This document shows, in pieces, positions 1 through 16,172 of a DNA stretch of 64,000 nucleotides. The stretch covers positions 2,604,001 to 2,668,000 of the forward strand of contig NZ_CP162004.1 in the NCBI RefSeq assembly GCF_040822115.1, given 5' to 3'. The first letter of the stretch is position 1, and each line of letters opens with the position of its first letter. This stretch comes from Flavobacterium sp. WC2421. Lineage in GTDB: Bacteria; Bacteroidota; Bacteroidia; Flavobacteriales; Flavobacteriaceae. Both the position numbers and the translations under genes were made by a program. The notes beneath the pieces were generated by a model. That model had not been told where the DNA came from. It did no database searches and saw nothing but the letters and a program-made list of their open reading frames with translations.

Positions 1-18
1 AAACGCCTGTTAGCACCA
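1..18 (-). repeat. attC-like site 0, right edge only
   Basis: Only the last bases of a site are in the window. The GTT-side box at 9-18 (GTTAGCACCA) is the exact reverse complement of the AAC-side box at 467-476, so these two boxes bound the first visible cassette. The hairpin of this site lies outside the window. Confidence 0.7.
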
Positions 19-46
19 GTGGTTCGTTCGTGTCGGTCTTTCGTTG

Positions 47-439
47 TCATTTTCCGTGAGTTATTCTAATTATTTTACAGTCTCTTGAGTCAATGATTAT
101 TAAAAATGTCCCACCTAAATATTCTTTTGGAAGTGTTCCACCAATTACCCAATAACTGTCAATGAAGTAAATTTCATATGGTCGCTGTTTAGTAATGTTG
201 TCTTTGCCGTAAATGCTGAAAAGAATTGGTTCTGCTATGTTTATTGCAGTCAAACTGTCTTTAATAATTGAAGTCTTGTTATCAATTACGTTGTGTTGGG
301 ATTTGTCGGTAAGTGCCGATTTAAGTTCTTGTTCAGCGTATGATTTTCCAAGTATAGTTCTGTCACTTTTTGTCTGTCCACACGCAGTTAATGTGAAAGT
401 CAAAAGTGTCAAAAAGTAAATTGCTTTTATGTTTTTCAT
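47..439 (-). CDS. NTF2-fold immunity lipoprotein, YbbC/YhhH type
   Basis: A small lipoprotein of 130 residues. The start at 439 gives a clean lipoprotein signal ending in LTAC, so I prefer it to an in-frame start at 580 that lies inside the attC palindrome. The second half carries the pattern of the NTF2-fold immunity family: a run with SIYGKDNI, then QRPYEIYFIDSYWVIGGTLP, then YLGGTFLIIIDSRDCKI and a final THGK. Members of this family are thought to neutralise polymorphic toxins or are found as stand-alone proteins, and no toxin gene is seen next to it. It is the only gene in cassette 1 and is read in the same direction as most cassette genes. Family assignment is from the motif pattern, and the partner toxin is unknown. 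Confidence 0.75.
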   Translation of the reverse strand: MKNIKAIYFLTLLTFTLTACGQTKSDRTILGKSYAEQELKSALTDKSQHNVIDNKTSIIKDSLTAINIAEPILFSIYGKDNITKQRPYEIYFIDSYWVIGGTLPKEYLGGTFLIIIDSRDCKIIRITHGK

Positions 440-466
440 TGGTCTGTTTTTATGTCGTCCTACCAT

Positions 467-608
467 TGGTGCTAACGGTTTACGGCTTGGCGATGTGGCG
501 GAAATCGAAGCACAAATGTTCAGTTCTGTACAAAAGTTCAATCGAAAAACTGAACTTGAATTTAGCACTTCAGCCGCCATATTGCCAAACCGATGTTAGC
601 GGTAGTGG
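467..608 (-). repeat. attC-like recombination site 1
   Basis: A 142 bp imperfect palindrome. The outer boxes are TGGTGCTAAC (467-476) and GTTAGCGGTAGTGG (595-608). The inner arms GGCTTGGCGATGTGGCGG and CCGCCATATTGCCAAACC pair with three mismatches or wobbles. The left box matches the edge of site 0 and the right box matches site 2, as expected if each cassette carries one box at each end. Confidence 0.8.
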
Positions 609-633
609 TTTGTCTCGAAGTCTTATATTTCTG

Positions 634-1536
634 TCAATTAAATGTTTGCCTGAACGCTAAAGGTGATAAACTTGTCTTTGTTTTAAATAAATTGCTGAAT
701 GATTGGGGATAGTCAAACCCTAACTGATATGCAATTTCACTAACCGATAGGTCTGTTGTTGACAATATTTCTTTTGCCTTGTCAATCAATTTATCTTGTA
801 TGTGTTGTTGCGTGCTTTTGCCTGTCAATACTTTTAGTAAACTGCTTAGATAATTAGGCGTTAAGTTTAATGTTTTAGCGATGTCTTGCACGGAAGGAAT
901 TCCAGTATTTAGCGATGCATCAGTATTAAAATAATTGGTAAGCAAATCTTCTAAACGAATTAATATTTGATGATTTGCTTTTTTTCGGGTAAGGAATTGG
1001 CGATTGTAAAATCGCTCAGAATAATTGAATAATAATTCCAACTGGGCTATAATTACATTATCGCTAAACTTGTCAAGATTTGAGTGATATTCCAGTTCAA
1101 TAGATTGCAGGATATTGATAATCATTGTTTCTTCCTTTTGTGAAAGATGCAAGGCTTCATTTGCCGAATAATCAAAAAAATCGTATTCTTTGATGGTCTT
1201 AGCCAATGGGGTGTTCCATAAAAAGTCTGGATGGATTGATAAAATCCATCCAGATGGCTTTGTCTTAATTTCGCTAACCTCTCTGCTCAAAACCTGTCCT
1301 GGCTTCATAAATAGCATTACACCTTCATCAAAATCAAATTCTTGCTGGCCGTATTTAAACTTTGTGTTTAAGGCTCTTTTGACAGAAACAGTGTAAAAAT
1401 CAAAAATTAAACTTATAGACTCTTTAATAGGCTCAAGATGGTCTAAATTAATCAGGCTTATTAACGGGTGTTCAGGTTTAGGTATTCCCAATGCCTGATG
1501 ATATTGGCTTATTGTTTTAATTTTTTGTATTCTCAT
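634..1536 (-). CDS. AraC-family transcriptional regulator
   Basis: 300 residues, the usual length for the family. The last 100 or so residues are the two helix-turn-helix motifs of AraC/XylS proteins, ending with the signature SVSEIAYQLGFDYPQSFSNL and FKTKTSLSPLAFR. The first 180 residues are a cupin-like ligand-binding region. The gene is 23 bp downstream of the oxidoreductase at 1560-2459 on the same strand, so the two probably form an operon in cassette 2, with the oxidoreductase first. It is strikingly similar across its length to the chromosomal AraC protein at 30556-31476, which also neighbours an NAD(P)-dependent oxidoreductase. The ligand and target genes cannot be read from the sequence. 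Confidence 0.9.
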   Translation of the reverse strand: MRIQKIKTISQYHQALGIPKPEHPLISLINLDHLEPIKESISLIFDFYTVSVKRALNTKFKYGQQEFDFDEGVMLFMKPGQVLSREVSEIKTKPSGWILSIHPDFLWNTPLAKTIKEYDFFDYSANEALHLSQKEETMIINILQSIELEYHSNLDKFSDNVIIAQLELLFNYSERFYNRQFLTRKKANHQILIRLEDLLTNYFNTDASLNTGIPSVQDIAKTLNLTPNYLSSLLKVLTGKSTQQHIQDKLIDKAKEILSTTDLSVSEIAYQLGFDYPQSFSNLFKTKTSLSPLAFRQTFN

Positions 1537-1559
1537 GATTTGCCAATTGAAAGTAATTT

Positions 1560-2459
1560 CTATTTATTGTAAGCCGCTGCAAATTCCTTTGCAAAATCTT
1601 TCATTTTAGTTTTCCCCAAAGCTGGTCGATTTCGGTAATATTCTACATACAGTTCACCACTGTGTATACTTGAAAACATTTCTACAAAGCCTTTTGCGAT
1701 GTGAAGGTTCATCCCAAACTTAACCATCCCGTCCAGAACCTGCTCATCAGAAATAAGTTTCCATTTTAAATCCGGTTTGCCAATGGCAGCACCTAAAATT
1801 CCTGCGACATCATTTCCAGAAAGTTCCTCACTCACTACATACCGGATTTTTATTCTTTCAAATGGGGCTTCCATTTCTTCCGCAATAGCAGTAGCAATGT
1901 CTAATGGTGATACCCAGAGAACAACATCATCAGCACCATAGTTAGATGTTATTACCCCTTGATTTTTTATAGCTGGTATAAAACTTAATAAATGGTAGTA
2001 AAAACCACCTGGTCGCATAAACGTAATGGAAACGTCATCAGGCAATTGCCGTAAAATATTTTCTACATTATAGTGTATGCGTAGGTTACCATTGCCCTTG
2101 TTAGTATGTGCACCGTTAGTGCTTAAATATACCACACGCTTTACACCCGACAGTTCAATTGCTTGTTTATAATTATTGCCAATTCGGGAATAATATGCTA
2201 CCAAATCAAAATGTGGGTCAAAAAAGTCTTTACTGTCATTTGTTATCATACAATAAACAATATCAGCTTTTTTAAAAACTGTCGATAGAAATTCCACATT
2301 TTCCATTGTGCCAATAGCTGCTTTTGCACCCAAAGCCTCAATTTCGTCTTTTCGTTCGACTTTACTACTGATAACTGTAACCGAATGCCCCTTTTGTATC
2401 AACTCTTTTGCTAGTTGCTTACTGATGTGTCCTAATGAACCTGTAACTATTATATTCAT
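1560..2459 (-). CDS. NmrA-like NAD(P)-binding oxidoreductase or sensor
   Basis: 299 residues with an N-terminal Rossmann fold: MNIIVTGSLGHISKQLAKEL carries the dinucleotide-binding loop, here TGSLGHI instead of the common TGATGxxG. YLSTNGAHT and MRPGGFYYHL match the NmrA/NAD(P)H-binding family (extended SDR). Proteins of this family either reduce small carbonyls or quinones or act as redox sensors without catalysis. The active-site YxxxK of classical SDRs is not evident, so a sensor role is possible. It is the first gene of the two-gene unit in cassette 2, followed by its likely regulator. Confidence 0.8.
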   Translation of the reverse strand: MNIIVTGSLGHISKQLAKELIQKGHSVTVISSKVERKDEIEALGAKAAIGTMENVEFLSTVFKKADIVYCMITNDSKDFFDPHFDLVAYYSRIGNNYKQAIELSGVKRVVYLSTNGAHTNKGNGNLRIHYNVENILRQLPDDVSITFMRPGGFYYHLLSFIPAIKNQGVITSNYGADDVVLWVSPLDIATAIAEEMEAPFERIKIRYVVSEELSGNDVAGILGAAIGKPDLKWKLISDEQVLDGMVKFGMNLHIAKGFVEMFSSIHSGELYVEYYRNRPALGKTKMKDFAKEFAAAYNK

Positions 2460-2579
2460 TTTCTATTTTTATTTAATGCAAAATTCGGCATCGAAGAAAC
2501 AACAGAAATAAGCGTATCTACTTTTGTCGTATGAAAATGTAAGGTTTTTAATGATTGTGAACATTGAAGTGGGTCGTAA

Positions 2580-2716
2580 CCATTACCGCTAACGTTTTGC
2601 CACTTTGAGATGGCTGGAAGTTCGTAACCGCTCAATTTTCGGCTTAACGAAAACTTGACGCGGAACGTTAATTCCACTAAATTCCAGCTATATCAAAATG
2701 GCTGTTACCTGCTGGC
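2580..2716 (-). repeat. attC-like recombination site 2
   Basis: A 137 bp imperfect palindrome with outer boxes CCATTACCGCTAAC (2580-2593) and GTTACCTGCTGGC (2704-2716). The arms GCCACTTTGAGATGGCTGGA and TCCAGCTATATCAAAATGGC are complementary except for three positions. The centre contains TTCGTAACCG followed by ATTTTC, shared in part with sites 3, 4 and 6. Confidence 0.82.
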
Positions 2717-2720
2717 ATTT

Positions 2721-4172
2721 TTACCATTTTATTAAATCTTCTTCTTCCAATACTTTTCTGATTGCTACTTTATTTAGTTGCAAATTTGAATTTATATTGA
2801 TTAGTTCAATTGGACAAGATAGAAAATTTGAAAAAATTTGTTTTAATCCTAATTCATTCTTTCCGTGAAAATCATAATTTGCAATTTCATTCGTGATATC
2901 TATTGAATTACAAGAAATTTTATTTATAACTTGATATTCGATATCATCACCAACAAAATTTTTAATATTTTGATTTGTACAGACTATATCAATATCGATT
3001 ATTTCATCTACCGCTTTGGGCAGATAAATTAAAGGATAATCATTGCTGATTAGTAGATTAATTATAAAATCAAATGATTTTTTAAATTCTGGGAGTTTGC
3101 GTAATTTAATAATGTTTTCAAAGAAATGTTTTTTTGTTTTTTCTTTTCTAAAGTCACCATGTGCATTGAAATAAATTTCAAATAAAACACCATTTAAAAC
3201 ATCATTTTCACCATCTATTTTTGTGTATTTCTGTAGTTTATTCTGAATATCTTCCATAAACTCACCTGCATTAAATGCGGCACCACTTGTTTGAAGTATA
3301 TTTCTTCCTAAAATAAATTCTTGATTTCTATCTAAATCATCTTTAGGTAAATTCAATAGTTTTTCAATGGCTGGATTTTGTTTGTTCCAATTATAAGATT
3401 TTAATTCTTGAATTAGAATTCCAAAACTGTCATTACTATTATATTTAATATCTTTAACCACATCTTCAGAATAAGGTAAAGCTAAAGAATAAACTAATTG
3501 TCCCGTATTAAAATAAAAATCACCAATTAAAGATGTATGTTCCCAAGTAGTTTGTTTTCCAGCGCTCAATGCATAAACTGTTTTCCTAACTTTCTTGAAT
3601 AATTCTTCAACAGATAATCTTTCTCTACCAATATATTTTAATAAAGCTCCTGTGAAAACACTATTTCCTTCAAATCCTTCATCACTTGCGCCATCATTTG
3701 GAGAAGTCGAGAAAGCAATAAAAGTTCCTTTTGGAGCACGAAATGGTGATGTTGCAATTACGCTTCCTCTTCCAAATCCTCTTCTACAAGCGTCTAAAAT
3801 TAATATATTTATTTTGTTAGTATTGTTACTATATATTTTCAATAAATCAGATACTTGAATGCAAGTTTGTTTGCAATGATACGAATTCGGATCTCCAATC
3901 TGACATTCAGTGAATGCTAAATAATTTTCACCGTCTTGCTCAAAACCATGACCTGCAAAAAAGAATATAGTTGCATCGTAATCTTTGATTCGATCTTCAA
4001 ATTCGGTTAATATTTCAACAATGTTTTTTGAATTTCCATCTGTTAAAAACATTATATCATAACCAAGTTTTTCAAATTCGTTTTTTAAACTAGTAGCATC
4101 GTTGACAGCATTTCCAAGTTTATGACCTTCATAATATTCATTGTTTCCAATGATTAGAGCTAATGTTTTCAT
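2721..4172 (-). CDS. Caspase-like (peptidase C14) protein
   Basis: 483 residues. The first 230 form a caspase/metacaspase domain: LALIIGNNEYY at the start, the catalytic histidine at about residue 75 in FFFAGHGFEQ, and the catalytic cysteine at about residue 129 in LILDACRRGFG. Both catalytic residues are present, so the protease is probably active. The remaining 250 residues resemble nothing I recognise and have no clear membrane segment or signal peptide. They may sense a trigger or bind a partner. Bacterial caspase-like proteins often act in cell-suicide defence against phage, and this one is the sole gene of cassette 3, which fits a portable defence module. The defence role is inference. 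Confidence 0.85.
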   Translation of the reverse strand: MKTLALIIGNNEYYEGHKLGNAVNDATSLKNEFEKLGYDIMFLTDGNSKNIVEILTEFEDRIKDYDATIFFFAGHGFEQDGENYLAFTECQIGDPNSYHCKQTCIQVSDLLKIYSNNTNKINILILDACRRGFGRGSVIATSPFRAPKGTFIAFSTSPNDGASDEGFEGNSVFTGALLKYIGRERLSVEELFKKVRKTVYALSAGKQTTWEHTSLIGDFYFNTGQLVYSLALPYSEDVVKDIKYNSNDSFGILIQELKSYNWNKQNPAIEKLLNLPKDDLDRNQEFILGRNILQTSGAAFNAGEFMEDIQNKLQKYTKIDGENDVLNGVLFEIYFNAHGDFRKEKTKKHFFENIIKLRKLPEFKKSFDFIINLLISNDYPLIYLPKAVDEIIDIDIVCTNQNIKNFVGDDIEYQVINKISCNSIDITNEIANYDFHGKNELGLKQIFSNFLSCPIELININSNLQLNKVAIRKVLEEEDLIKW

Positions 4173-4222
4173 TTTTTAAGTTGTTATATTTTCGTCATTT
4201 TAGGTATGCTTGCAGGTAACGT

Positions 4223-5937
4223 CAGTCTGTGAAAAAACTTTCGTTTGATTCTCAATCAAATATAGCAAAATACTAGAATAAAAAGAGGAATTTTCGTATT
4301 TTTAGTCATGCAACACATCACAGGAATTTCCCGCCACCAAATGCGTTTTTCGAGTTTAGAAGACGCCATAAGTACAGATAATCAGGTACGCTTTATCGAT
4401 GCCTTCGTTGGACATATTGATCTGAGCAAGCTTGGTTTCGCTGTAAAAACGCTTAAGACCGAAGGTCGGCCCAGTTTCAATAGCCAAGTCTTTCTAAAAA
4501 TCTACTTATACGGTTATCTCAACGGGTTCAGAAGTGGTCGTGACTTAGAAAAAGAATGTTCAAGAAATATAGAAATGCAATGGCTTTTAGAAAATATTCG
4601 TCCCAATTACCATAGTATCACTGATTTTAGAAAGAATAATCCTTTGGCTTTAAAAAACACCTTTAAGCTATTTGTTTCCTTTTTAAAAGATTCCGACTTA
4701 ATAGGCGGTGAAACCATAGCCATTGATGGCACAAAAAGTCGAGCTCATAATAGTAAGAAAGCCAATTTCAACCAAAAGAAAATTGACAAACACCTCGAGT
4801 ATATTGAATCCAAAACCCAAGAATACTTAACTGCTTTGGATGAAAATGATGTTAAAGAAAGTGCTACTAAAATACAGCACATCCAACAAAAAATAGAACG
4901 ATTAAAGGGGAATAAATTGCGTTATGAACTACTGGAAGAAAAACTAAAAGCCAGCGGAGAACCACAGATAAGCACCACCGATAGCGATGCTAGAGCGTTA
5001 TTAGTTCAAGGGCAAGTGGTCGAGATTTCCTTCAATATCCAAGCTGCAGTTGATTCCAAACATAATCTTGTGGTTGCAACTCACACCATTAATCGTAATG
5101 ATCGCAGTGCATTATCAGCAATCGCTTTGGAAGCCAAAGAAAACTTAGGCATTGAGACTTATACGGCTTTGGTAGACAAAGGTTATCATAATGGCAGACA
5201 AATAGAAATTTGCCAGCAAGCCAATATCACTACCATAGTAGCTCAACCTGAACAAGGAAAAAGCAATGAAAATGGAACAACCGCAGCCTATTTAGTTTCC
5301 CAATTCCAATACGATAAAACCACCGACAGCTATACTTGTCCAAAGGGCGAAGTATTAAAAACGACAGGTAGTTGGCACAAGAAAAGCAAAGATAGAGATA
5401 GTTATAATTTTAAAAAATACCGAACCCCCAAATGCAAAGGATGTTCGGTAAAACATTTATGCACAAGTCGAGCAGGAGGCAGGGAAATAGACCGCAGTCA
5501 ATATGGGGATGCTGTAGAAGCAAACAATAAACGCTATCACGCAAATGCACAACTCTACCGCAAACGACAGGAGATAAACGAACACATCTTTGGAACCATC
5601 AAGCGGCAATGGGGTTACAATTATACCAATTTAACAGGATTGGAAAAAGTAAACGGCGAACACAGCTTAATAATGCTAGTTTATAACATCAAACGCAGTA
5701 TCAACATCCTGGGCGTTCCTGATTTGATTACCAAACTAAAAAAATGGAACTCACCCTACAAGGCAAAAGTCTTGCTTTGGTTAAAAACGAACTATTTAAG
5801 ACTGAAATTAGCCTTCGTATCATATAAAACTAAATTAGCAGCGTAAAAAATTAGCCTTCTTACAAGGCTTTATTAGTAGTGTTGCGATATGAAAATTGAG
5901 TGATTTTGAGGAAAAAAGGAGGTTTTTTCACAGCCTG
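4223..5937 (+). mobile_element. IS1182-family insertion sequence, copy 1
   Basis: 1715 bp. Terminal inverted repeats are CAGTCTGTGAAAAAAC on the left and CAGGCTGTGAAAAAAC (read inward) on the right, one mismatch in 16. The element is flanked by ACGT on both sides (4219-4222 and 5938-5941), a 4 bp target duplication. It holds a single transposase gene followed by a small hairpin (AGCCTT/AAGGCT, 5853-5869) that may end its transcript. Confidence 0.92.
4308..5846 (+). CDS. IS1182-family transposase, copy 1
   Basis: 512 residues, full length for the family. The N-terminal third is the DUF772-type domain (FLKIYLYGYLNGFRSGRDLE). The DDE core follows, with candidate aspartates in IAIDGTKSRAHN and LVDKGYHNG and the glutamate in EINEHIFGTIKRQWGY. 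A cysteine cluster in PKCKGCSVKHLC precedes the last part, typical of IS1182 transposases. It differs from copy 2 at three residues: Ser168, Arg297 and Tyr439 here. No frameshift is present, so it is likely functional. Confidence 0.95.
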   Translation: MQHITGISRHQMRFSSLEDAISTDNQVRFIDAFVGHIDLSKLGFAVKTLKTEGRPSFNSQVFLKIYLYGYLNGFRSGRDLEKECSRNIEMQWLLENIRPNYHSITDFRKNNPLALKNTFKLFVSFLKDSDLIGGETIAIDGTKSRAHNSKKANFNQKKIDKHLEYIESKTQEYLTALDENDVKESATKIQHIQQKIERLKGNKLRYELLEEKLKASGEPQISTTDSDARALLVQGQVVEISFNIQAAVDSKHNLVVATHTINRNDRSALSAIALEAKENLGIETYTALVDKGYHNGRQIEICQQANITTIVAQPEQGKSNENGTTAAYLVSQFQYDKTTDSYTCPKGEVLKTTGSWHKKSKDRDSYNFKKYRTPKCKGCSVKHLCTSRAGGREIDRSQYGDAVEANNKRYHANAQLYRKRQEINEHIFGTIKRQWGYNYTNLTGLEKVNGEHSLIMLVYNIKRSINILGVPDLITKLKKWNSPYKAKVLLWLKTNYLRLKLAFVSYKTKLAA

Positions 5938-6076
5938 ACGTTTTGCGGCTTTGCGAGGTTACGAAGTTCGTAACCGAGATTTTTCTGCTAAGATAAAATT
6001 TCTTGCGATAGATAAACGTGAATTTACCACATATTTCGCAATCTCGCAAAACCGCTGTTACCTGCTGGCTTTTTAT

Positions 6077-7132
6077 TTATTTCAAAATGGTGTTATAAAT
6101 TTCATTCAATAGTTTATTTCTAATTTCTGAGTTTCTTTGGTTTATCAATATAATAATTCCCCAATTTTTGGCTCTATTATAGCATATAAGTGAAGATTGC
6201 CCCATTAAATCACCAGATTTTTGATAAAGTGTGTTTTTTTCATCTTTCATTATGTTTGTACCTAAACCTAATTGTCTTTTTTCATCTTTATAGAAGATTT
6301 CTTCTGTCATCATAGCGGCTTTACCAATTGCCGTTTCATTATTTAAGACCGCTTTCAGGTATTTAACCATATCAGAAGCATTAGATTTTATTAATCCTGA
6401 TGGTGCAGTGATATTCCAATTAAATAATTCTTGAGCACCTCCATCAGGGTTGTAACCAACAACTCTGTTTTTCACATCGAAGTTTATAGTTAAGGTATTA
6501 GTCATTTTTAATGGATTTATTATGTTGCTTTTGATAATTTTATCATAACTTTTGCCATACACTTTTTCTAGAATTAGTCCCAGTAAAGTATAGCCAATGG
6601 TAGAGTAACGGTATTTACCATAATCTTTTAACTCTGTACAATTATTGATTATCGTAGTCAATGTTTCTTCCGTTATGCTGCTTACTGGCTGTTGCGGATC
6701 AATCTCAATTAACTTTGCAAAATCAATATCAGGCAAACCAGATTGATGAGAAGCCAAGTCAGAAATTTTGATTTTGTTTTTGAGATTTTTATTTAAAACA
6801 TAGGCTTTCGGAATATAGTTATCAATGTAATCTTCTAATTTTATTCTATTCTCAATAACTGCCTGTGCAATTAAATTTGAAGTTAAGATTTTAGTAATAG
6901 AGGCAATTTCGAATAGAGTATTTTTGTCAACTTTAGTCTGACTATCCTTACTCAAATTACCATACGCTGTAAAATATTCTACATTATTGCTAACGAAACC
7001 AACGCTAATGCTAACGTCAGGATTTTTTTGATAATTCGCATTTATTATAGAATCAATCTTTTTAGAAATGTCTTGTGCAAAAGAAAAGTTGCTTACTAAA
7101 AGCGCTGCTAAAATTTTTAATGAAGTTCTCAT
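6077..7132 (-). CDS. Serine beta-lactamase-fold hydrolase, exported
   Basis: 351 residues with a signal peptide (MRTSLKILAALLVSNFSFAQ). It is a class C beta-lactamase/penicillin-binding-like protein: the nucleophile motif SxxK is ASITKILTSN at about residue 77, and the second motif appears as RYSTIGYTLLG, where the family usually has YxN, so the Asn is replaced by Thr. A KSGD segment near residue 300 may serve as the third motif. Such proteins include beta-lactamases, esterases and D-amino acid peptidases, and antibiotic hydrolysis cannot be claimed from sequence. It shares cassette 4 with the membrane AraC regulator upstream, 140 bp away on the same strand. Confidence 0.85.
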   Translation of the reverse strand: MRTSLKILAALLVSNFSFAQDISKKIDSIINANYQKNPDVSISVGFVSNNVEYFTAYGNLSKDSQTKVDKNTLFEIASITKILTSNLIAQAVIENRIKLEDYIDNYIPKAYVLNKNLKNKIKISDLASHQSGLPDIDFAKLIEIDPQQPVSSITEETLTTIINNCTELKDYGKYRYSTIGYTLLGLILEKVYGKSYDKIIKSNIINPLKMTNTLTINFDVKNRVVGYNPDGGAQELFNWNITAPSGLIKSNASDMVKYLKAVLNNETAIGKAAMMTEEIFYKDEKRQLGLGTNIMKDEKNTLYQKSGDLMGQSSLICYNRAKNWGIIILINQRNSEIRNKLLNEIYNTILK

Positions 7133-7272
7133 TGTATCGTTTATTTTGTGTTAATAAATTATTTCGATACAAATTTGTGGAAGAATTGAAACTTATGCGA
7201 CCGAATGGATGTACTCGACCACATTTCTGAAAAAAAATTGGTACGAATAGTTAAAGTAAAAAGTACGAGTAA

Positions 7273-8409
7273 TTACAAGTGTTTGTTTTTTAGTCTTTTA
7301 CGATAAGAAGTTGGCGTATTTCCTGTGTGTTTTTTAAAAGCAGTATTAAAAGAAGATTTAGAATTAAAACCAACTTCATACAAAATCTCAAGAACTGTGA
7401 CTTTACTTTTTGATGAATCTTTCAAAATTTCAATTGTATTTTCGATCCGGTAAGTGTTCACGAAATCATAAAAATGCTGACCCAACTGATGATTAATTAA
7501 AACTGATAATTCACGAACTGGAATATCTAAAGAATTTGAAATATCCTGAATCGTCAAAGCAGGATCAAGAAATGGCTTTTCATCAGCCATATATTTCTTT
7601 AATCTCAAAAGATCTTCGTTTAAAGTTTCAGGTTCGATTTTTTTCTCTTCAGAGATAATATCAGAAACCAGTTTTAATTTTGAATCAATATTCCTGAATA
7701 AACTGGGATTATTTAATGCTTTATATAAATACCAAAAAATGATGAAGAATTCAAATACCAGAAGTCCAATTTTTAACCCTTCGGAGATGTTAAGATACAC
7801 TGTAAACTTAAATATGTTTTTTACTAGCGCAATGAAGTAAAAGGCTGACAATGCAAAGGTAAATTGAAATAACCAATTAAGTGATTCGATACTTGCTCCT
7901 GCATAATTTTCAAGATAAATTTTCCTTGCTTTTCTCAATATCATAAAAGCTGCAACGATGTATAACAGCATTTGAATGTGCATTAAAATATGATTAAACT
8001 GTATTTCTGGTATACTACTACTTTTTTCGAGCAAACGAATTTTTGAAGGCAAATCGACAGTATAAAAGTGGGGTAATAAGATTAAATTTGCTATTAAAAA
8101 AGCAACACTATGAATTAAATGTTTTTGCTTGAGCTTAAAATCAGAATAGCAAACGGATAAGACATATAAATAAAAAGTAGGAAGTTGTAAGAAAAAAAAT
8201 GAACTTATAAAAACTCTAACATTCAACGAAATATAAAACAAAGAGTTTATATTTCCAATCATGTCAATTGCAGTTAAAACCAAAAAAAAGGCAAAAAGAC
8301 TATTACTTAATTTATGTTCTGTTTTGACTGTAACCAAAAATAATGCTAGAAATAATGAAATGAACATTGTTATTACAGAGATTGTAACCAATAAATTAAT
8401 TTTATCCAT
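7273..8409 (-). CDS. Membrane-anchored AraC-family regulator (7TM type)
   Basis: 378 residues. The first 230 contain about seven hydrophobic segments, starting with INLLVTISVITMFISLFLA and ending near IGLLVFEFFIIFWYLY. The last 100 residues are an AraC DNA-binding domain with VLEILYEVGFNSKSSFNTAF and KKHTGNTPTSYRKRL. This arrangement is common in Flavobacteria, where a membrane domain senses an unknown signal and the cytoplasmic tail binds DNA. It lies upstream of the beta-lactamase-fold gene in the same cassette and may control it. The signal is unknown. Confidence 0.9.
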   Translation of the reverse strand: MDKINLLVTISVITMFISLFLALFLVTVKTEHKLSNSLFAFFLVLTAIDMIGNINSLFYISLNVRVFISSFFFLQLPTFYLYVLSVCYSDFKLKQKHLIHSVAFLIANLILLPHFYTVDLPSKIRLLEKSSSIPEIQFNHILMHIQMLLYIVAAFMILRKARKIYLENYAGASIESLNWLFQFTFALSAFYFIALVKNIFKFTVYLNISEGLKIGLLVFEFFIIFWYLYKALNNPSLFRNIDSKLKLVSDIISEEKKIEPETLNEDLLRLKKYMADEKPFLDPALTIQDISNSLDIPVRELSVLINHQLGQHFYDFVNTYRIENTIEILKDSSKSKVTVLEILYEVGFNSKSSFNTAFKKHTGNTPTSYRKRLKNKHL

Positions 8410-8478
8410 TAATCTTTTTTTTATTTTTCATTTTGTTTCTTGAATTTTCCACATTTTTTTTAAGCTTGCAGGTAACGT

Positions 8479-10193
8479 CAGTCTGTGAAAAAACTTTCGT
8501 TTGATTCTCAATCAAATATAGCAAAATACTAGAATAAAAAGAGGAATTTTCGTATTTTTAGTCATGCAACACATCACAGGAATTTCCCGCCACCAAATGC
8601 GTTTTTCGAGTTTAGAAGACGCCATAAGTACAGATAATCAGGTACGCTTTATCGATGCCTTCGTTGGACATATTGATCTGAGCAAGCTTGGTTTCGCTGT
8701 AAAAACGCTTAAGACCGAAGGTCGGCCCAGTTTCAATAGCCAAGTCTTTCTAAAAATCTACTTATACGGTTATCTCAACGGGTTCAGAAGTGGTCGTGAC
8801 TTAGAAAAAGAATGTTCAAGAAATATAGAAATGCAATGGCTTTTAGAAAATATTCGTCCCAATTACCATAGTATCACTGATTTTAGAAAGAATAATCCTT
8901 TGGCTTTAAAAAACACCTTTAAGCTATTTGTTTCCTTTTTAAAAGATTCCGACTTAATAGGCGGTGAAACCATAGCCATTGATGGCACAAAAAGTCGAGC
9001 TCATAATAGTAAGAAAGCCAATTTCAACCAAAAGAAAATTGACAAACACCTCGAGTATATTGAATTCAAAACCCAAGAATACTTAACTGCTTTGGATGAA
9101 AATGATGTTAAAGAAAGTGCTACTAAAATACAGCACATCCAACAAAAAATAGAACGATTAAAGGGGAATAAATTGCGTTATGAACTACTGGAAGAAAAAC
9201 TAAAAGCCAGCGGAGAACCACAGATAAGCACCACCGATAGCGATGCTAGAGCGTTATTAGTTCAAGGGCAAGTGGTCGAGATTTCCTTCAATATCCAAGC
9301 TGCAGTTGATTCCAAACATAATCTTGTGGTTGCAACTCACACCATTAATCGTAATGATCGCAGTGCATTATCAGCAATCGCTTTGGAAGCCAAAGAAAAC
9401 TTAGGCATTGAGACTTATACGGCTTTGGTAGACAAAGGTTATCATAATGGCAAACAAATAGAAATTTGCCAGCAAGCCAATATCACTACCATAGTAGCTC
9501 AACCTGAACAAGGAAAAAGCAATGAAAATGGAACAACCGCAGCCTATTTAGTTTCCCAATTCCAATACGATAAAACCACCGACAGCTATACTTGTCCAAA
9601 GGGCGAAGTATTAAAAACGACAGGTAGTTGGCACAAGAAAAGCAAAGATAGAGATAGTTATAATTTTAAAAAATACCGAACCCCCAAATGCAAAGGATGT
9701 TCGGTAAAACATTTATGCACAAGTCGAGCAGGAGGCAGGGAAATAGACCGCAGTCAATATGGGGATGCTGTAGAAGCAAACAATAAACGCTATCACGCAA
9801 ATGCACAACTCTACCGCAAACGACAGGAGATAAACGAACACATCTTTGGAACCATCAAGCGGCAATGGGGTTACAATCATACCAATTTAACAGGATTGGA
9901 AAAAGTAAACGGCGAACACAGCTTAATAATGCTAGTTTATAACATCAAACGCAGTATCAACATCCTGGGCGTTCCTGATTTGATTACCAAACTAAAAAAA
10001 TGGAACTCACCCTACAAGGCAAAAGTCTTGCTTTGGTTAAAAACGAACTATTTAAGACTGAAATTAGCCTTCGTATCATATAAAACTAAATTAGCAGCGT
10101 AAAAAATTAGCCTTCTTACAAGGCTTTATTAGTAGTGTTGCGATATGAAAATTGAGTGATTTTGAGGAAAAAAGGAGGTTTTTTCACAGCCTG
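8479..10193 (+). mobile_element. IS1182-family insertion sequence, copy 2
   Basis: 1715 bp, the same length, termini and orientation as copy 1, and flanked by ACGT on both sides (8475-8478 and 10194-10197). Outside the element the flanks match copy 1 only over the short core box on the left (GCTTGCAGGTAACGT) and ACGTT on the right. It therefore looks like an independent insertion into a homologous position and not a duplication of a larger block. Confidence 0.92.
8564..10102 (+). CDS. IS1182-family transposase, copy 2
   Basis: 512 residues, intact. It is identical to copy 1 except Phe168, Lys297 and His439 (Ser, Arg and Tyr in copy 1). Position 297 directly follows the GYHNG motif near a candidate catalytic aspartate, and the Arg/Lys exchange is conservative. 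The near-identity suggests recent transposition within this genome. Confidence 0.95.
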   Translation: MQHITGISRHQMRFSSLEDAISTDNQVRFIDAFVGHIDLSKLGFAVKTLKTEGRPSFNSQVFLKIYLYGYLNGFRSGRDLEKECSRNIEMQWLLENIRPNYHSITDFRKNNPLALKNTFKLFVSFLKDSDLIGGETIAIDGTKSRAHNSKKANFNQKKIDKHLEYIEFKTQEYLTALDENDVKESATKIQHIQQKIERLKGNKLRYELLEEKLKASGEPQISTTDSDARALLVQGQVVEISFNIQAAVDSKHNLVVATHTINRNDRSALSAIALEAKENLGIETYTALVDKGYHNGKQIEICQQANITTIVAQPEQGKSNENGTTAAYLVSQFQYDKTTDSYTCPKGEVLKTTGSWHKKSKDRDSYNFKKYRTPKCKGCSVKHLCTSRAGGREIDRSQYGDAVEANNKRYHANAQLYRKRQEINEHIFGTIKRQWGYNHTNLTGLEKVNGEHSLIMLVYNIKRSINILGVPDLITKLKKWNSPYKAKVLLWLKTNYLRLKLAFVSYKTKLAA

Positions 10194-10294
10194 ACGTTCT
10201 CGCGCTTCTAGATGTTTGCAACTTACGAAGACGAGTATTTTCGGCTGAACGAAGATATGATAAAAAACGGTAATTCCACTAAAATTGCAAATAT

Positions 10295-10831
10295 CTAGAA
10301 ACGTGTGTTGGTGGCTGGTTCTATTTTCCGCTCTACAAATTCAACAACTTTTAAAAATTCTGCTTTTCCAATTTCGCTTTCTGATAAAGTATAATAACTT
10401 CCATTTTCTTTGAAACCAAAGAAAAGAGTATTGTCTACAACTTCAGAATATTTTACAGTTTCCCAATTAATTTTATAATCTCCACCATAAAATTTAAATC
10501 TAAAAAAATCATCTTCAAACTCCCAAATACTTATTGGATTATTATTCCAAATTTGGATATTTTCAATCATTATATTTTCCGTTGCTTTTTTTGCTTTTAA
10601 GTATTTCTGTAAACGATATAAAAAAACAATACCTGCTAATATTCCAAGGATTATAAATAAATTCCCGATATCACCATTTCCACATAAAATAATAATTCCA
10701 AGTAAAATGAAAATAAATGCAATAATTGCGAGTTTTTTATTTTCTGTTTTCGATTTTGACCAAGAACGATTAAACGTTAATTCTATCTGTTTTTTAAAAA
10801 TGTTTTCGTCAAATTTTATTTCAAATTTCAT
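10295..10831 (-). CDS. Small membrane protein with YcxB-like C-terminal part
   Basis: About 178 residues from the start at 10831. An in-frame start at 10864 would lie in the attC box and is less likely. Two adjacent hydrophobic segments (LAIIAFIFILLGIIILCG and IGNLFIILGILAGIVFLY) form a hairpin in the membrane. The C-terminal half (IWEFEDDFFRFK, then INWETVKYSEVVDNTLFF) resembles the YcxB-like/PH-like domain of small bacterial membrane proteins of unknown role. The last four or five codons and the stop fall inside attC-like site 4, so the gene fills its cassette. No function can be given. Confidence 0.7.
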   Translation of the reverse strand: MKFEIKFDENIFKKQIELTFNRSWSKSKTENKKLAIIAFIFILLGIIILCGNGDIGNLFIILGILAGIVFLYRLQKYLKAKKATENIMIENIQIWNNNPISIWEFEDDFFRFKFYGGDYKINWETVKYSEVVDNTLFFGFKENGSYYTLSESEIGKAEFLKVVEFVERKIEPATNTRF

Positions 10832-10856
10832 ATTTACGTTCTGTTTTTTTGAACTT

Positions 10857-10999
10857 GCCACCAACGGTTCGCTTGTTTATTTCAGTTGTGGACTTGACAA
10901 GCGGAATCTATCGGAAATAACAAATTAAACCAAATATTACTAATCATTAAATTAAAGAATTATGCCACAATTGAATAAACAAGCTGTTAGTAACAGTAC
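10857..10999 (-). repeat. attC-like recombination site 5
   Basis: 143 bp. Outer boxes are GCCACCAAC (10857-10865), an exact reverse complement of the right box of site 4, and GTTAGTAACAGTAC (10986-10999). The arms GCTTGTTTATTTCAGTTGTG and CACAATTGAATAAACAAGC pair almost perfectly apart from a one-base bulge. The start of the methyltransferase gene (10962) lies in the right arm. Confidence 0.8.
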
Positions 11000-11726
11000 T
11001 TTATTTTTTAACGACTGCTTTGACGTTTTCCCGATAATAAAAGATAAAAGTATTGATATGATATTTTGTGATTTACCTTATGGAACAACTAACTGCAGTT
11101 GGGATTCTGTTTTAGATTTGCCTAAATTATGGAAGGAATACGAAAGGGTTATAAAAGATAATGGTGCAATAATATTAACAGCACAAACGCCATTTGACAA
11201 GGTATTAGGAGTTAGTAATCTAAAGTTATTGAGGTATGAATGGATATGGGAAAAAACAACAGCAACTGGACATTATAACGCAAAAAAAATGCCTATGAAA
11301 GCACACGAAAATGTACTTATATTTTACAAAAATCTACCAACGTACAACCCAATAAAAACGCAAGGACACAAACCTGTAAACTCATTTACAAAATATATCG
11401 AAACTCAAAACGGAACGGAAATATATGGAAAATCAAATAAAGAGGTTTCAGGAGGAGGAAATACTGACAGATACCCAAGAAGTGTACAGATATTTGCATC
11501 TGATAAACAAAAATTAAAACTACATAGTACACAAAAGCCTGCAGCTTTGACTGATTATTTTATAGAAACTTACTCAAACGAGGGTGATGTGATTTTAGAT
11601 AACTGTATGGGTAGTGGAACAACAGGAGATTCTTGTGAAAGATTAAATAGAAAATTTATAGGAATAGAAAATCTAAAAGTTCATTTTGACACTGCAGTTA
11701 ATCGCATCACGCAGTATTGTTACTAA
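10962..11726 (+). CDS. Orphan DNA methyltransferase (N6-adenine/N4-cytosine type)
   Basis: 254 residues. Motif IV is CDLPYGTTNCSWD near residue 38, with DLPY instead of the usual DPPY. The AdoMet-binding motif I lies near the C-terminus (VILDNCMGSGTTGDSCERL, then RKFIGIE). Motif IV before motif I is the beta-class order. A TRD-like stretch lies between them. No restriction endonuclease gene is adjacent, so it is a solitary methylase that may protect against restriction or mark DNA. It is the only cassette gene read on the plus strand. Its start codon is inside the attC-like arm of its own cassette, and its stop TAA is formed by the core box at 11724-11726, so the gene uses the cassette end to end. 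Confidence 0.9.
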   Translation: MPQLNKQAVSNSTLFFNDCFDVFPIIKDKSIDMIFCDLPYGTTNCSWDSVLDLPKLWKEYERVIKDNGAIILTAQTPFDKVLGVSNLKLLRYEWIWEKTTATGHYNAKKMPMKAHENVLIFYKNLPTYNPIKTQGHKPVNSFTKYIETQNGTEIYGKSNKEVSGGGNTDRYPRSVQIFASDKQKLKLHSTQKPAALTDYFIETYSNEGDVILDNCMGSGTTGDSCERLNRKFIGIENLKVHFDTAVNRITQYCY

Positions 11727-11857
11727 CGTTTCGCGGCTTCAAGAAGTGGCGAACTTCGTAACCGCATATTTTCCACTAAGATAATATTTCTTGCGAAAGA
11801 AATACATCAATTTAGCACATTTCTCGCCATTTCTTGAAACCGCTGTTGTGCGATCGC
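11714..11857 (-). repeat. attC-like recombination site 6
   Basis: 144 bp with outer boxes GTATTGTTACTAAC (11714-11727) and GTTGTGCGATCGC (11845-11857). The arms GCGGCTTCAAGAAGTGGCGA and TCGCCATTTCTTGAAACCGC pair with few mismatches. The central stretch with CTTCGTAACCG, CTAAGATAA and TTTCTTGCGA is nearly the same as the centre of site 3, although the arms of the two sites differ. Confidence 0.82.
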
Positions 11858-11860
11858 TTT

Positions 11861-13105: not shown

Positions 13106-13157
13106 ATTATTTTAATTTCGTTCTATTTCGTTCTATTTCGTTCAGTTTTTCCAAAGT

Positions 13158-13299
13158 GTCGCACAACGTCCCCGCGCTACACGCAGTTTGGGACTAAATT
13201 AAGCCCATTCTTCGGATTTGCCAAATCTTCCAAATACAAAACCAATTTTTCATTTAAGCCAAATTCCCAAATTGCTTGTAGCGTGTGTTATGCGTAGTA
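13158..13299 (-). repeat. attC-like recombination site 7
   Basis: About 142 bp. Outer boxes are GTCGCACAAC (13158-13167) and GTTATGCGTAGTAA (13287-13300). The arms CGCTACACGCAGTTTGGGA and TCCCAAATTGCTTGTAGCG pair with three mismatches. The centre is less like that of the other sites. Confidence 0.8.
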
Positions 13300-13302
13300 A
13301 TT

Positions 13303-13803
13303 TTATAGATAATCATTATCTGATTCTGCTAAATTCAGCACTTGTTCTTTCTTGTATATAATTTCCCATATCATTTTATAAAATTCCAAAAAAGGTTTCG
13401 CTCTTTGATCATTTAAATCACTTGTAAAACCTGTTTTATAAGAGACAAATTTTTTTTCTCCATTAGAATAGATAATTACACTCCTTTGAAAACTAGGATT
13501 TTTAATTGTTATGATTTTTTCTTTCGGTTTAAATTGATTAGGCATTTTATGAAAACTTATTTTTTTCATGAATGAATAAATTCTTTCTTTTTCATCTTTT
13601 GTTAATTCTACTTTAATAGTCGCAACGCTATCTATGTATGTTCTGTAAAAGTTGTTGTATAGAGAATTGTAAGCATTATTTCCGCCGTCACTAATTTCAA
13701 AATGGAAGTCAGTTGGGATTTCATTCAGCAATTGTTTTTTTTGACTGAAACAGTAAAAACTAAAAAGTGAGAATATTAAAACTATATATTTTATTTTTTT
13801 CAT
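13303..13803 (-). CDS. Exported protein of unknown function
   Basis: 166 residues from the start at 13803, which opens a clear signal peptide (MKKIKYIVLIFSLFSFYCFS). An in-frame ATG at 13827 sits inside the core recombination box and would add eight charged residues before the signal. The mature part has no motif I recognise. It contains FHFEISDGGNNAYNSLYNNF early and a basic beta-rich stretch (IITIKNPSFQRSVIIYSNGE). It is the only gene of cassette 8, the one next to the recombinase, which in an integron would be the most recently inserted. Confidence 0.7.
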   Translation of the reverse strand: MKKIKYIVLIFSLFSFYCFSQKKQLLNEIPTDFHFEISDGGNNAYNSLYNNFYRTYIDSVATIKVELTKDEKERIYSFMKKISFHKMPNQFKPKEKIITIKNPSFQRSVIIYSNGEKKFVSYKTGFTSDLNDQRAKPFLEFYKMIWEIIYKKEQVLNLAESDNDYL

Positions 13804-13816
13804 ACGCTTCGTTTTA

Positions 13817-13874
13817 TTATTACGCATAACTTGTATATAACATCAAATATATACATCTTTTTGGATGTTTTTGA
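13817..13874 (-). other. Candidate attI-like insertion site
   Basis: Between the recombinase stop and the first cassette lies one core box without a full palindrome. TTATTACGCATAAC (13817-13830) is complementary at 13 of 14 positions to the right box of site 7. On the minus strand this reads GTTATGCG, the point where cassette 8 would join the recombinase side. The rest (13831-13874) is AT-rich with a small hairpin, ACATC/GATGT. Lack of large arms is what distinguishes attI from attC in integrons. Confidence 0.6.
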
Positions 13875-15629
13875 TCAATCTTTCAGTTTTTTCTTGTTAT
13901 TTTCATCTACCAAGCGATCTAATGGACTGAGTATCTTATCAGTTGCCATCTTCGAAACATGCGTGTATATTGTAGTCGTTTTAATACTAGCATGACCTAA
14001 GAATTTTTGAATGTATCTAATGTCTGTGCCACTTTCTAATAGATGGGTGGCAAAACTATGGCGTAAGGTATGTACAGTAGCACTTTTCGATAATCCGGAT
14101 TTTTTTAGTGCTTGTCGCATTACTGATTGCGCACTACCAATGCTGTAGGGTTCCCCTGCATATTGCCCTTCAAAAACATATTTATTGGGTTCGTATAATG
14201 TCTTATAAAGCTCCAGTGAACTTACAATAGAGTAGGGCAACATCACCAGGCGGTCTTTCTTGCCCTTGGCATTTTTAATATGAATTTTATGCTCGGCAAA
14301 TAATATATCGCGCCACTCTAGAGTTACAATCTCACTTACACGTAGGCCTGCACCATAGCCTATTAACAATAATAATTTGTGTTTTGGGTTGTCTACAGCT
14401 CTGAAAATTTGTAGACATTCTTCCATGGTTAATACTGCCGGTAATTTTTTTTCACTTTTTGGTCGAGGAATTTTTAGTTCAAAGCCTTTTTGATGTTCAA
14501 TTTGCTGATAATAAAATAATAAAGCATTTACCATATTGTGTCCGGAGGAGGCTGATAAACCGCGCTCCATAATGGAAGCCAAGTATTTTATGATTTCTTT
14601 TTGTGTAATGGTGTGAGGATCTCTAAACTGGTGATCCCGCAGGAATTTTAAAAAGGAACTGGTATACGTTCGCATCGTGGAACTACTGTAATTAAGCGCC
14701 AATATAGTGTCTACCATTAACGTAATATAGTCATGTGCTGCATCAGGAACTTGGTTGAATAGTTGCGCTTTGGTTTTACTTAAATCGAGTTGTTTCCTGT
14801 TAGGTAAGTTTTGTTTCAATAAATACCCTTTAGGAAGCCGGTTGTTAATTAGTACTTTATGAGGCTCAAATTGCATTCCCATGGCCTCATATACACTAGG
14901 TGCGGCAGGAAGTAAATAACAGTCTTTGATGGTACTAAAACGAGCCATAGAGAACCGTTTTATTTTTTCTCGCAATACAAGAAATGGTGGTACATACACT
15001 TCCATCCATTTCGGGTCTTCTGGATGTGGTTTTACTATAATCGATTCAGATGTAAAGACCGTTTCGCTTTTGTAAGAATCATTTTCAGGAAAAAAAGAGG
15101 ATGCGCCAAGTATTTTTTCAACTTGCAATTTTACATTAGTGTTCCTTAGCACCATGTAAACCTTATAATTGGCATTCCAATAGACTCCTTTTGTGGCCAA
15201 TAATTGCCTGCTTATTGCCTGATAATACTGCATCTTGAAAACCCAATACTTACCTAAATTAGGCAGTAATTCTAAACGCATGTTGGGTGCTAACGAATTT
15301 GTTTTCGCTATATGTTCAGGGTTATTCAGCATTAGTGCCGAATCTAACTGAAGGTTGGCTGTGGCTATGGCTGGAAGGTCACGGCCTATGGTAAGGCCGG
15401 CCAGCGGTTGCGTTTTAGTCTTTTTTGGGTTGTCAATAACCAAATCATCAAAGGTTTGACTTATGAGCTTGTAATTTACAGCATTGTAATCAAAATACCA
15501 ACAACGGAGCGACTGGCTATAGATTCCTCCCAATTTTTTTAATTGAGAAATAGTCCCACTATCATAGGTAAAAAAAAGTCCGATTCGATCTGCATCGCGA
15601 TGCCATATCTTTTTTACAATTATTTGCAT
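13875..15629 (-). CDS. Tyrosine recombinase of the cassette array, with long N-terminal extension
   Basis: 584 residues, against about 300-370 for XerC/D and IntI. The C-terminal catalytic domain is complete: Arg in GAGLRVSEIVTLEW (about 425), Lys in AKGKKDRLVMLP (about 453), HTLRHSFATHLL (about 520), LGHASIKTT and the nucleophile Tyr in IYTHVSK (about 556). A SAM-like core-binding domain precedes it (about 300-385). The roughly 35-residue IntI insertion between the beta hairpin and HTLRH is absent. The first 290 residues appear to hold three related modules, near 5-60, 115-178 and 195-275, each with a hydrophobic strand, a helix rich in K/L, then an aromatic strand such as SLRCWYFDYN or NYKVYMVLR. 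They could bind folded DNA, which is inference. The gene ends 45 bp from the first cassette box and is co-oriented with most cassette genes. Confidence 0.9.
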   Translation of the reverse strand: MQIIVKKIWHRDADRIGLFFTYDSGTISQLKKLGGIYSQSLRCWYFDYNAVNYKLISQTFDDLVIDNPKKTKTQPLAGLTIGRDLPAIATANLQLDSALMLNNPEHIAKTNSLAPNMRLELLPNLGKYWVFKMQYYQAISRQLLATKGVYWNANYKVYMVLRNTNVKLQVEKILGASSFFPENDSYKSETVFTSESIIVKPHPEDPKWMEVYVPPFLVLREKIKRFSMARFSTIKDCYLLPAAPSVYEAMGMQFEPHKVLINNRLPKGYLLKQNLPNRKQLDLSKTKAQLFNQVPDAAHDYITLMVDTILALNYSSSTMRTYTSSFLKFLRDHQFRDPHTITQKEIIKYLASIMERGLSASSGHNMVNALLFYYQQIEHQKGFELKIPRPKSEKKLPAVLTMEECLQIFRAVDNPKHKLLLLIGYGAGLRVSEIVTLEWRDILFAEHKIHIKNAKGKKDRLVMLPYSIVSSLELYKTLYEPNKYVFEGQYAGEPYSIGSAQSVMRQALKKSGLSKSATVHTLRHSFATHLLESGTDIRYIQKFLGHASIKTTTIYTHVSKMATDKILSPLDRLVDENNKKKLKD

Positions 15630-15740: not shown

Positions 15741-15868
15741 TTTTCGCTGTCGCAAAAGGGGATCTTGCGTGAAGGATCAAAGTGGAAATCCTCCCGATTT
15801 TTTTCGGGAGATTGTAGCGTAGAGCCTGACGCTGCTGCAACGGAGTGGAAGCTGGGGCACGCCCAAAA
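15741..15868. repeat. GC-richer intergenic element with hairpin
   Basis: A gene-free stretch clearly richer in G and C than its surroundings. It contains a hairpin CTCCCGA (15791-15797) with TCGGGAG (15804-15810) around a T-run. From memory, similar sequences recur between genes in Flavobacterium genomes, which suggests a dispersed repeat. I cannot verify that here. It marks the junction between the cassette array and the core-like genes. Confidence 0.45.
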
Positions 15869-15892
15869 ATAGGGAATCGTGAAAGTCGTTTT

Positions 15893-16172
15893 CCGTTGAT
15901 CGTTTATCGAACTACGAACATCGAACTACGAACATCGAACAACGTGCATCGAACAACGAAAACCGTCCATCGCAAGATAGATCATCTACTAACGAACAAC
16001 GGTCAACGAAAACCGTCCACCGTTTACCGTCCATCGCAAGATAGATCAACTACTAACGAACAACGGTCAACGAATAACGGTCAACGAACAACGAACAACG
16101 AACAACGTGCATCGAACAACGGTCAACGAACATCGGTCAACGAACATCGGTCAACGAACAACGATTAACAAT
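15893..16172. repeat. Degenerate short tandem repeat tract
   Basis: About 280 bp built from variants of CGAACAACG, CGGTCAACGA and CGAACATCG. A longer unit of 47 bp occurs twice (15963-16009 and 16027-16073) with one mismatch, and CAACGTGCATCGAACAACG recurs near 15940 and 16105. The tract reaches the last codons of the serine dehydratase gene. Its apparent open frame encodes only low-complexity TNNGQR-type repeats and is not a gene. Confidence 0.75.

What the first reader, a model, noticed from the sequence alone, without database searches (positions are those of the whole stretch)
1..15629. Integron-like cassette array driven by a recombinase that is not a standard IntI
Seen: seven palindromic sites of 133-144 bp punctuate the DNA, each between one- or two-gene units, and the array ends at a tyrosine recombinase. 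The right box of each site is complementary to the left box of the next (for example GTTAGCGGTAGTGG at 595-608 against CCATTACCGCTAAC at 2580-2593), exactly as in integron cassettes. Known: integrons use IntI, attI and attC. Inference: this is an integron-type gene capture platform of Bacteroidetes with its own recombinase type, which IntI-based searches would miss.
Basis: partly seen in the sequence, partly recalled or inferred. Interest (0 to 1): 0.95.

Follow-up and report, generated by a model that had tools for sequence, protein, structure and literature searches.

The report
Integrons lacking the hallmark integrase domain
This stretch of a Flavobacterium-like genome holds gene cassettes, separated by hairpin sites, that have been swapped between bacteria and are likely moved by the recombinase beside them; similar sites occur in most sampled genera of its class, yet the recombinase lacks the extra domain that integrons are said to need.

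Summary
Seven hairpin sites lie in the window (12 in the whole array, which starts upstream), with an attI-like leader beside a tyrosine recombinase. A covariance model from nine sites matches 241 of 395 sampled genomes of the class (130 of 196 genera). The box of one site is complementary to the box of the next in 72/79 and 58/74 adjacent pairs, against 2/99 and 4/103 within a site. In 17 of 21 related loci homology stops at or within 19 bp of the attI GTT. One 1.3-kb cassette with its hairpin is 96.8-98.7% identical to copies in five other genomes (five families in all), cut at GTT; in two further genomes a more diverged or partial copy sits at an attI or attI-like leader. So the cassettes move as in integrons. 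The enzymes differ from IntI: the IntI insertion (I2) is missing in 41/41 measured, scores lie below the IntI cut-off, and they group beside IntI, apart from Xer. Hairpins carry a near-invariant A·C mismatch, not bulged bases. Gut arrays that fit the definition of rAID have recombinases of this group and partly follow the box rule. Activity is untested.

The parts
1..21 (-). end of site 0 (GTT/AAC box at 9-19); the rest of the site, split by a third IS copy, lies upstream of the window
464..607 (-). hairpin site S1
   Evidence: R1 120.6 bits
634..2459 (-). cassette cargo: AraC-type regulator (634-1536) and NmrA/NAD-binding protein (1560-2459)
2581..2716 (-). hairpin site S2
   Evidence: R1 128.2 bits
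2721..4172 (-). cassette cargo: caspase-domain protein
4205..4222 (-). hairpin site S3, outer part cut off by the IS
4223..5937 (+). IS1182-family element inside S3, ACGT duplication
5938..6069 (-). hairpin site S3, main part
   Evidence: R1 124.1 bits for 5926-6069
6077..8409 (-). two-gene cassette cargo: beta-lactamase-fold protein (6077-7132) and AraC-type regulator (7273-8409)
8466..8478 (-). hairpin site S4, outer part cut off by the IS
8479..10193 (+). IS1182-family element inside S4, ACGT duplication
10194..10319 (-). hairpin site S4, main part
   Evidence: R1 112.7 bits for 10182-10319
10295..10864 (-). cassette cargo: unknown protein
10853..10998 (-). hairpin site S5 (overlaps the start of the methyltransferase ORF)
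   Evidence: R1 101.6 bits
10962..11726 (+). cassette cargo: DNA methyltransferase, against the array sense
11715..11857 (-). hairpin site S6
   Evidence: R1 129.3 bits
11861..13105 (-). cassette cargo: DUF1036 protein
13154..13299 (-). hairpin site S7
   Evidence: R1 107.1 bits
13303..13827 (-). cassette cargo of the first cassette: unknown protein
13818..13862 (-). attI-like leader, TATATACAA|GTT plus the box of the first cassette (GTT at 13828-13830)
13875..15629 (-). tyrosine recombinase, 584 aa, without I2; residues 306-563 catalytic, 1-260 three modules

Best explanation
It is an integron-type array whose cassettes, each ending in a hairpin site, have been exchanged between bacteria at a GTT box, most likely by the adjacent tyrosine recombinase, which lacks the IntI-specific domain. 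Each cassette starts at GTT and ends with an AAC box whose ten or so bases are complementary to that start, followed by the hairpin. New cassettes are inferred to join the attI-like leader just behind the recombinase gene. Shown by comparison: unit boundaries at GTT, exchange between species and families, linkage and orientation of sites to recombinase genes. Inferred: that this enzyme does it, that the site is used as a folded single strand as in IntI integrons, and that the A.C and T.G mismatches give the site its polarity in place of the extrahelical bases of attC.
For: Box rule 72/79 and 58/74 adjacent pairs against 2/99 and 4/103 same-site. In 40 class loci that I picked (22 families), sites lie downstream on the recombinase strand in 28; 104 such sites against 5 others. 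In 21 named loci 15 hold sites, 62/62 on the recombinase strand and 61/62 downstream. Homology to the window ends at 13809-13828 in 17 of 21 of these loci, at 13826-13828 in 10. Cassette L075_c11 with hairpin: 96.8-98.7% identical over 1440-1451 bases in G399, G402, G374, G417 and G122; left edge 1-2 bases before GTT, right edge 0-11 bases past the GTT at the end of its hairpin; flanks unrelated. It follows the attI leader in G408 (93% over 395 bp, contig edge) and an attI-like sequence in G447 (87%). Recombinase and sites in 395 genomes: both 167, recombinase only 35, sites only 74, neither 119, odds ratio 7.7. Cassette ORFs: 96/120 in array sense, 8 against, 16 unclear.
Against: No activity was measured. 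74 of 395 genomes have sites without a recombinase at E<=1e-60 and 35 the reverse. 12 of 40 class loci show no downstream site; 6 of the 12 are within 1.4 kb of a contig end. In G022 the recombinase is divergent from its array. 7/79 and 16/74 adjacent pairs break the box rule. In 4 of 21 loci homology ends inside the recombinase gene. Many genomes are drafts or MAGs, so mis-binning of single shared cassettes cannot be excluded.
Confidence: 0.93

Rival explanations
1. The hairpins are relics or repetitive elements of fixed place, and cassettes are exchanged by homologous recombination between the similar hairpins, without site-specific recombination.
For: Sites without a nearby recombinase are common (74 of 395 genomes; several arrays of the own genome).
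Against: The box of a cassette start matches its own end box and not that of its neighbour hairpin; shared cassettes are cut at GTT with unrelated flanks; the same cassette is found behind different hairpins and behind attI leaders.
Confidence: 0.03
2. The cassettes are moved by another enzyme (XerCD, a transposase) and the adjacent recombinase is a passenger.
For: No activity data; 74 of 395 genomes have sites without this recombinase at the threshold used.
Against: Linkage, orientation and attI position next to the recombinase in 28 of 40 and 15 of 21 loci; co-occurrence odds ratio 7.7. The two other Xer-like genes of the own genome lie elsewhere.
Confidence: 0.04
3. Same mechanism, other history: the enzymes are true IntI that lost I2 and whose sites lost their bulges, not a lineage that never had them.
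For: The group lies beside IntI in both trees; the integron-like subgroup was already described as not fully conserving the insertion (PMC8138268, passages).
Against: 41 of 41 relatives in two deep branches lack it and form a separate group from IntI (97/69; 85/86 with added rows). The trees are unrooted with only two partial XerA rows, so order of gain and loss is not settled.
Confidence: 0.25

Closest known systems
IntI integrons (mobile, chromosomal and archaeal)
   Same: recombinase beside attI, cassettes with a palindromic AAC...GTT site, start box complementary to the cassette's own end box, co-oriented ORFs, arrays without a recombinase
   Different: enzyme lacks I2 and has one to three N-terminal modules; boxes of about 10 bp, of which 9/120 fit GTTRRRY and 9/120 RYYYAAC; fixed mismatches, rarely bulges; attI 3' of the recombinase gene with the array co-directional, one divergent exception
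rAID, recombinase-associated acquired interbacterial defence, of gut Bacteroidales
   Same: recombinase in the same I2-less group, co-oriented gene array, intergenic motifs that follow the box rule in 11 of 22 adjacent pairs against 12 of 274 others
   Different: hairpins of about 40 nt that R1 does not find; cargo of T6SS immunity genes, here mixed; I assigned the two plasmid loci to rAID by gene content, and in the passages I read rAID is not called an integron
XerC/XerD with dif, archaeal XerA
   Same: tyrosine recombinase fold; closest structures are XerA and IntI4
   Different: 66-aa spacing in 15 of 15 Xer measured, separate group
Integron-like Y-recombinase subgroup of a 2021 classification (PMC8138268)
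   Same: described as not fully conserving the insertion
   Different: passages seen give no arrays, attI or sites for the members without it

Membership tests
IntI integron | integrase over the TIGR02249 cut-off (265 bits) | tested here: not met
   216 bits; five relatives 197-212
IntI integron | IntI-specific additional domain (I2) | tested here: not met
   K-motif to HxLRH spacing 58-59 aa in 41 of 41 rows, 100 in the 25 of 29 IntI rows that could be measured, 66 in 15 of 17 Xer; stated as defining and necessary in PMC9668308 (passages)
IntI integron | palindromic sites with AAC and GTT boxes | tested here: met
IntI integron | canonical RYYYAAC / GTTRRRY boxes (recalled consensus) | tested here: not met
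   9/120 each
IntI integron | extrahelical bases in the folded site | tested here: not met
   8 of 144 sites gain 4 or more pairs from a one-base bulge; A.C mismatch at one place in 121 of 122 sites of the three main registers
IntI integron | cassette start box complementary to its own end box | tested here: met
IntI integron | attI beside the integrase gene | tested here: met
   9 of 10 loci. Insertion there is seen by comparison only
IntI integron | mobile cassettes | tested here: met
   by comparison:
IntI integron | attI x attC recombination by the encoded enzyme | not testable with these tools
   needs an assay
IntI integron | SOS control of the integrase gene | not tested
   no search for LexA boxes was made
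rAID | recombinase of the rAID kind | tested here: inconclusive
   two rAID-type recombinases fall in the same I2-less group, spacing 59, but group support is 85/86 and the bootstrap had not settled
rAID | array of orphan T6SS immunity genes | tested here: not met
   window cargo is caspase-like, methyltransferase, regulators, hydrolase and unknowns
XerCD-dif | Xer spacing and group | tested here: not met

The most novel reading that the evidence does not exclude
The class Bacteroidia runs its own integron system, sister to IntI and older than or independent of the I2 domain: hairpin sites with fixed mismatches instead of bulged bases, read by an enzyme without I2. It is the intermediate that the I2/attC chicken-and-egg problem calls for, it feeds a cassette pool shared across families, and the gut rAID immunity arrays are one branch of it, which explains how they gain genes.
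Probability: 0.6. Interest if true: 0.97.

Novelty: new variant of a known kind. Interest (0 to 1): 0.92.

Why it matters
Integron theory ties folded attC sites to the I2 domain, and how the pair arose is called a chicken-and-egg paradox in PMC4792948 (passages). A class-wide system that exchanges hairpin-ended cassettes without I2 makes that question testable: purify the enzyme, change the mismatches, compare with IntI. It also offers a mechanism for how rAID arrays gain immunity genes, which PMC12247911 (passages) names as open. And it suggests that surveys resting on IntI models are likely to overlook gene capture in much of Bacteroidia: over-cut-off IntI appeared in 84 of 296 phylum genomes, of which one (G075) is of the window's class.

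Tried and rejected
Rfam has no family for the sites; the one overlap (MIR7807 at site 7) is far below its gathering score. Foldseek places both models with XerA and IntI and says nothing on the N-terminal modules; the long model is weak (pLDDT 73, pTM 0.35). A DUF5710-like match of the module is not significant (E 0.04-0.17). Candidate U3 (-6011) was dropped after alignment because its boxes did not fit. My first scans of the rAID-type arrays used hairpin rules that found too little; the count given is. R1 finds nothing convincing in L234-L238 (two weak matches). Phage records: 24 with a relative, none covering 80% of the query, not pursued.

Cautions on counts. Of the 111 rows and I left out two each: weak opposite-strand readings of palindromes already counted. 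Pairs without AAC/GTT near the expected place dropped out. In one search I left out sites cut by a contig or locus edge and L094 8074-8206, which lies upstream of its recombinase. GTT and AAC are fixed by my box finder, so their 120/120 is by construction; A at position 11 in 119/120 is not. R1 was built with the mismatch columns and so favours sites that have them; the nine founding sites were chosen by palindrome and boxes. One search also shows a second, variable mismatch place (42 of 85 paired in the main register). One search scored at most 8 candidates a genome with strict filters. In one search the reversed control pattern also had 3 matches, as against 7. The 40 class loci were picked by hand. 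In the 75-row tree an IS91-associated recombinase with Xer spacing falls beside IntI on a long branch (92/68), so 'sister of IntI' is not exclusive.
Full report
Observation. The window is G000:C1:2604001-2668000 of a single-contig 3.83-Mb genome. Seven hairpin sites of about 136-146 bp stand between one- and two-gene units; two are split by IS1182-family insertions. Read on the minus strand, away from the recombinase, each has an AAC box, a stem arm, a variable middle, the second arm, a short A-rich unpaired stretch and a GTT box. In a 9-site alignment 93.8% of stem cells pair and 17 of 18 pairs have changes on both sides; none of 500 shuffles did as well. On 111 matches the figure is 92.2%, covariation score 0.743 against 0.173 in shuffles (that alignment is fitted to the model). 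The whole array has 12 sites over G000:C1:2598973-2617299.

Box rule. In an integron the start of a cassette is complementary to the end box of the same cassette, so in an array the right box of one site matches the left box of the next. Here 72 of 79 adjacent pairs match at 10 or more of 12 positions, against 2 of 99 within a site, 36 of 902 non-adjacent within arrays and 213 of 9722 over all other pairs. In 40 further loci of the class it is 58 of 74 against 4 of 103. The common start is GTTR followed by variable bases and an A at position 11 in 119 of 120, opposite C in 106 and G in 14 of the end boxes; 9 of 120 fit the classical GTTRRRY.

attI. Behind the recombinase stop codon lies a leader that ends in TATATACAA|GTT and the box of the first cassette. 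In 9 of 10 recombinase loci a box matching the first site (9-11 of 12) was found in that place, with related though not identical leaders. Three other arrays of the same genome begin with the same leader, one beside a recombinase remnant; 4 of 7 genomic matches to TATAWACAAGTTR start arrays, and a reversed control pattern had 3 matches. That the one intact recombinase serves them in trans is inference.

Species comparison. Twenty-one named or MAG loci of Flavobacterium and kin hold a close recombinase. In five of them (L089, L090, L091, L094, L109) the flank from about 16125 onward aligns too. Homology to the window ends at 13809-13828 in 17 of 21 loci, at 13826-13828 in 10; in the other four it ends inside the gene. 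Beyond the leader only the hairpins align. Sites were found in 15 of the 21 loci, all 62 on the recombinase strand, 61 downstream.

Movement between families. One cassette (L075_c11 of G011; about 1.32 kb plus its hairpin) is 96.8-98.7% identical over 1440-1451 bases in G399, G402, G374, G417 and G122: six genomes and five families with the source. The left edge lies 1-2 bases before GTT, the right edge 0-11 bases past the GTT at the end of its hairpin, and the flanks are unrelated. G635 holds 950 bases at 99.8%, its left part masked. In G408 (93% over 395 bp, contig edge) the cassette follows the same leader that one search reports for that genome with another cassette; in G447 (87%) it follows an attI-like sequence. 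This is the pattern expected of insertion at attI, seen by comparison only. In all 29 of 395 sampled class genomes hold some match at E<=1e-50, most of them diverged or partial. A 365-bp cassette occurs twice, identical, within one array.

Distribution. R1 matches 241 of 395 sampled class genomes, 130 of 196 genera, at E<=0.001. An alignment of 12 recombinases matches 202 of 395 at E<=1e-60. Both occur in 167, recombinase only in 35, sites only in 74, neither in 119. In 40 recombinase loci that I picked from 22 families, 28 have sites downstream on the same strand (104 sites, 5 others); 6 of the 12 without lie within 1.4 kb of a contig end. In G022 the recombinase is divergent from its array. 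A plasmid of Chryseobacterium sp. SNU WT5 carries a recombinase with six downstream sites.

The enzyme. It scores 216 bits against the IntI model (cut-off 265), 188 against XerA and about 160 against XerC and XerD. Among five relatives none reaches the IntI cut-off, and two pass that of NF040815, which NCBI names 'site-specific tyrosine recombinase/integron integrase'. The spacing between the catalytic-lysine motif and HxLRH is 100 aa in the 25 of 29 IntI rows that could be measured, 66 in 15 of 17 Xer, and 58-59 in 41 of 41 relatives: the IntI insertion is absent. In a tree of 89 rows IntI (29 rows, 100/100) and this group (41 rows, 97/69) are together separated from Xer and XerA with 100/96. 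With plasmid and rAID rows added the joint group keeps 100/97 and this group 85/86; the bootstrap had not settled, and an IS91-associated recombinase falls beside IntI on a long branch. The models show one N-terminal beta-alpha module in the short type and three in the window's type; their role is unknown. [quoted passage not shown]

The hairpin. Of 144 sites measured, 8 gain four or more pairs from a one-base bulge. In the three main registers (122 sites) an A·C mismatch sits at one place in 121, with its neighbours paired in 97-100%; a T·G stands nine positions nearer the box in 89. Published work says that I2 holds the extrahelical bases of attC, is not known elsewhere, and poses a chicken-and-egg problem (PMC4792948, passages). 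Here both are absent together and fixed mismatches stand in their place. That these give polarity is inference.

rAID. Two gut Bacteroidales plasmids have a recombinase of this group followed by co-oriented immunity-type genes. This fits the published definition of rAID (tyrosine recombinase, co-oriented short genes, conserved intergenic motifs); the same preprint calls the mechanism of rAID biogenesis an area of active research (PMC12247911, passages). The short intergenic hairpins follow the box rule in part: runs of 7 or more in 11 of 22 adjacent pairs against 12 of 274 others, 6 of 7 in Parabacteroides distasonis and 5 of 15 in Bacteroides ovatus. The original 2019 paper is not held, so I cannot say whether it drew the integron comparison.

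Literature. Ten searches of the open-licence library listed no paper that I could recognise, from titles and abstract starts, as reporting such arrays in Flavobacteriia or an I2-less integron. IntegronFinder 2 reports a complete integron in Salinibacter and, in the earlier survey, only integrases without arrays in Bacteroidetes (PMC9024848, passages). Most subscription papers are not covered.

Verdict. By comparative evidence it works like an integron. By the tested defining features it is not a member of the IntI family. New variant of a known kind, class-wide, with a direct bearing on how integrons arose.

Noticed in passing
window 4223-5937 and 8479-10193; G000:C1:2602173-2603889: All three copies of an IS1182-family element found in the genome sit at the same TAACGT core of three array sites with ACGT duplications: an insertion sequence that seems to target these hairpins.
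   Followed up: yes
window 15762-15835: Flavo-1 RNA (RF01705, 49.5 bits) just upstream of the recombinase gene.
   Followed up: no
window 15887-16177: Degenerate tandem repeats of CGAACAACG type between the recombinase and the sdaA-like gene.
   Followed up: no
L234: On an Acinetobacter plasmid a relative of this recombinase group lies just before tet(X3), with a hairpin and GTT between them and an AAC box with the start of a hairpin behind the gene; the two boxes do not match. Described only.
   Followed up: partly
L072 (G022): Array divergent from its recombinase, unlike the other recombinase-linked arrays.
   Followed up: no
window 2721-4172 and 10962-11726: Cassette cargo includes a caspase-domain protein and a DNA methyltransferase that match PADLOC models.
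   Followed up: partly
window 14730-15629: N-terminal part of the recombinase is predicted as three copies of a roughly 60-aa beta-alpha module, single in shorter relatives; weakly like DUF5710.
   Followed up: partly
L081:4974, L082:4961, L085:5911: Three other arrays of the same genome start with an attI-like leader but have no intact recombinase beside them.
   Followed up: partly
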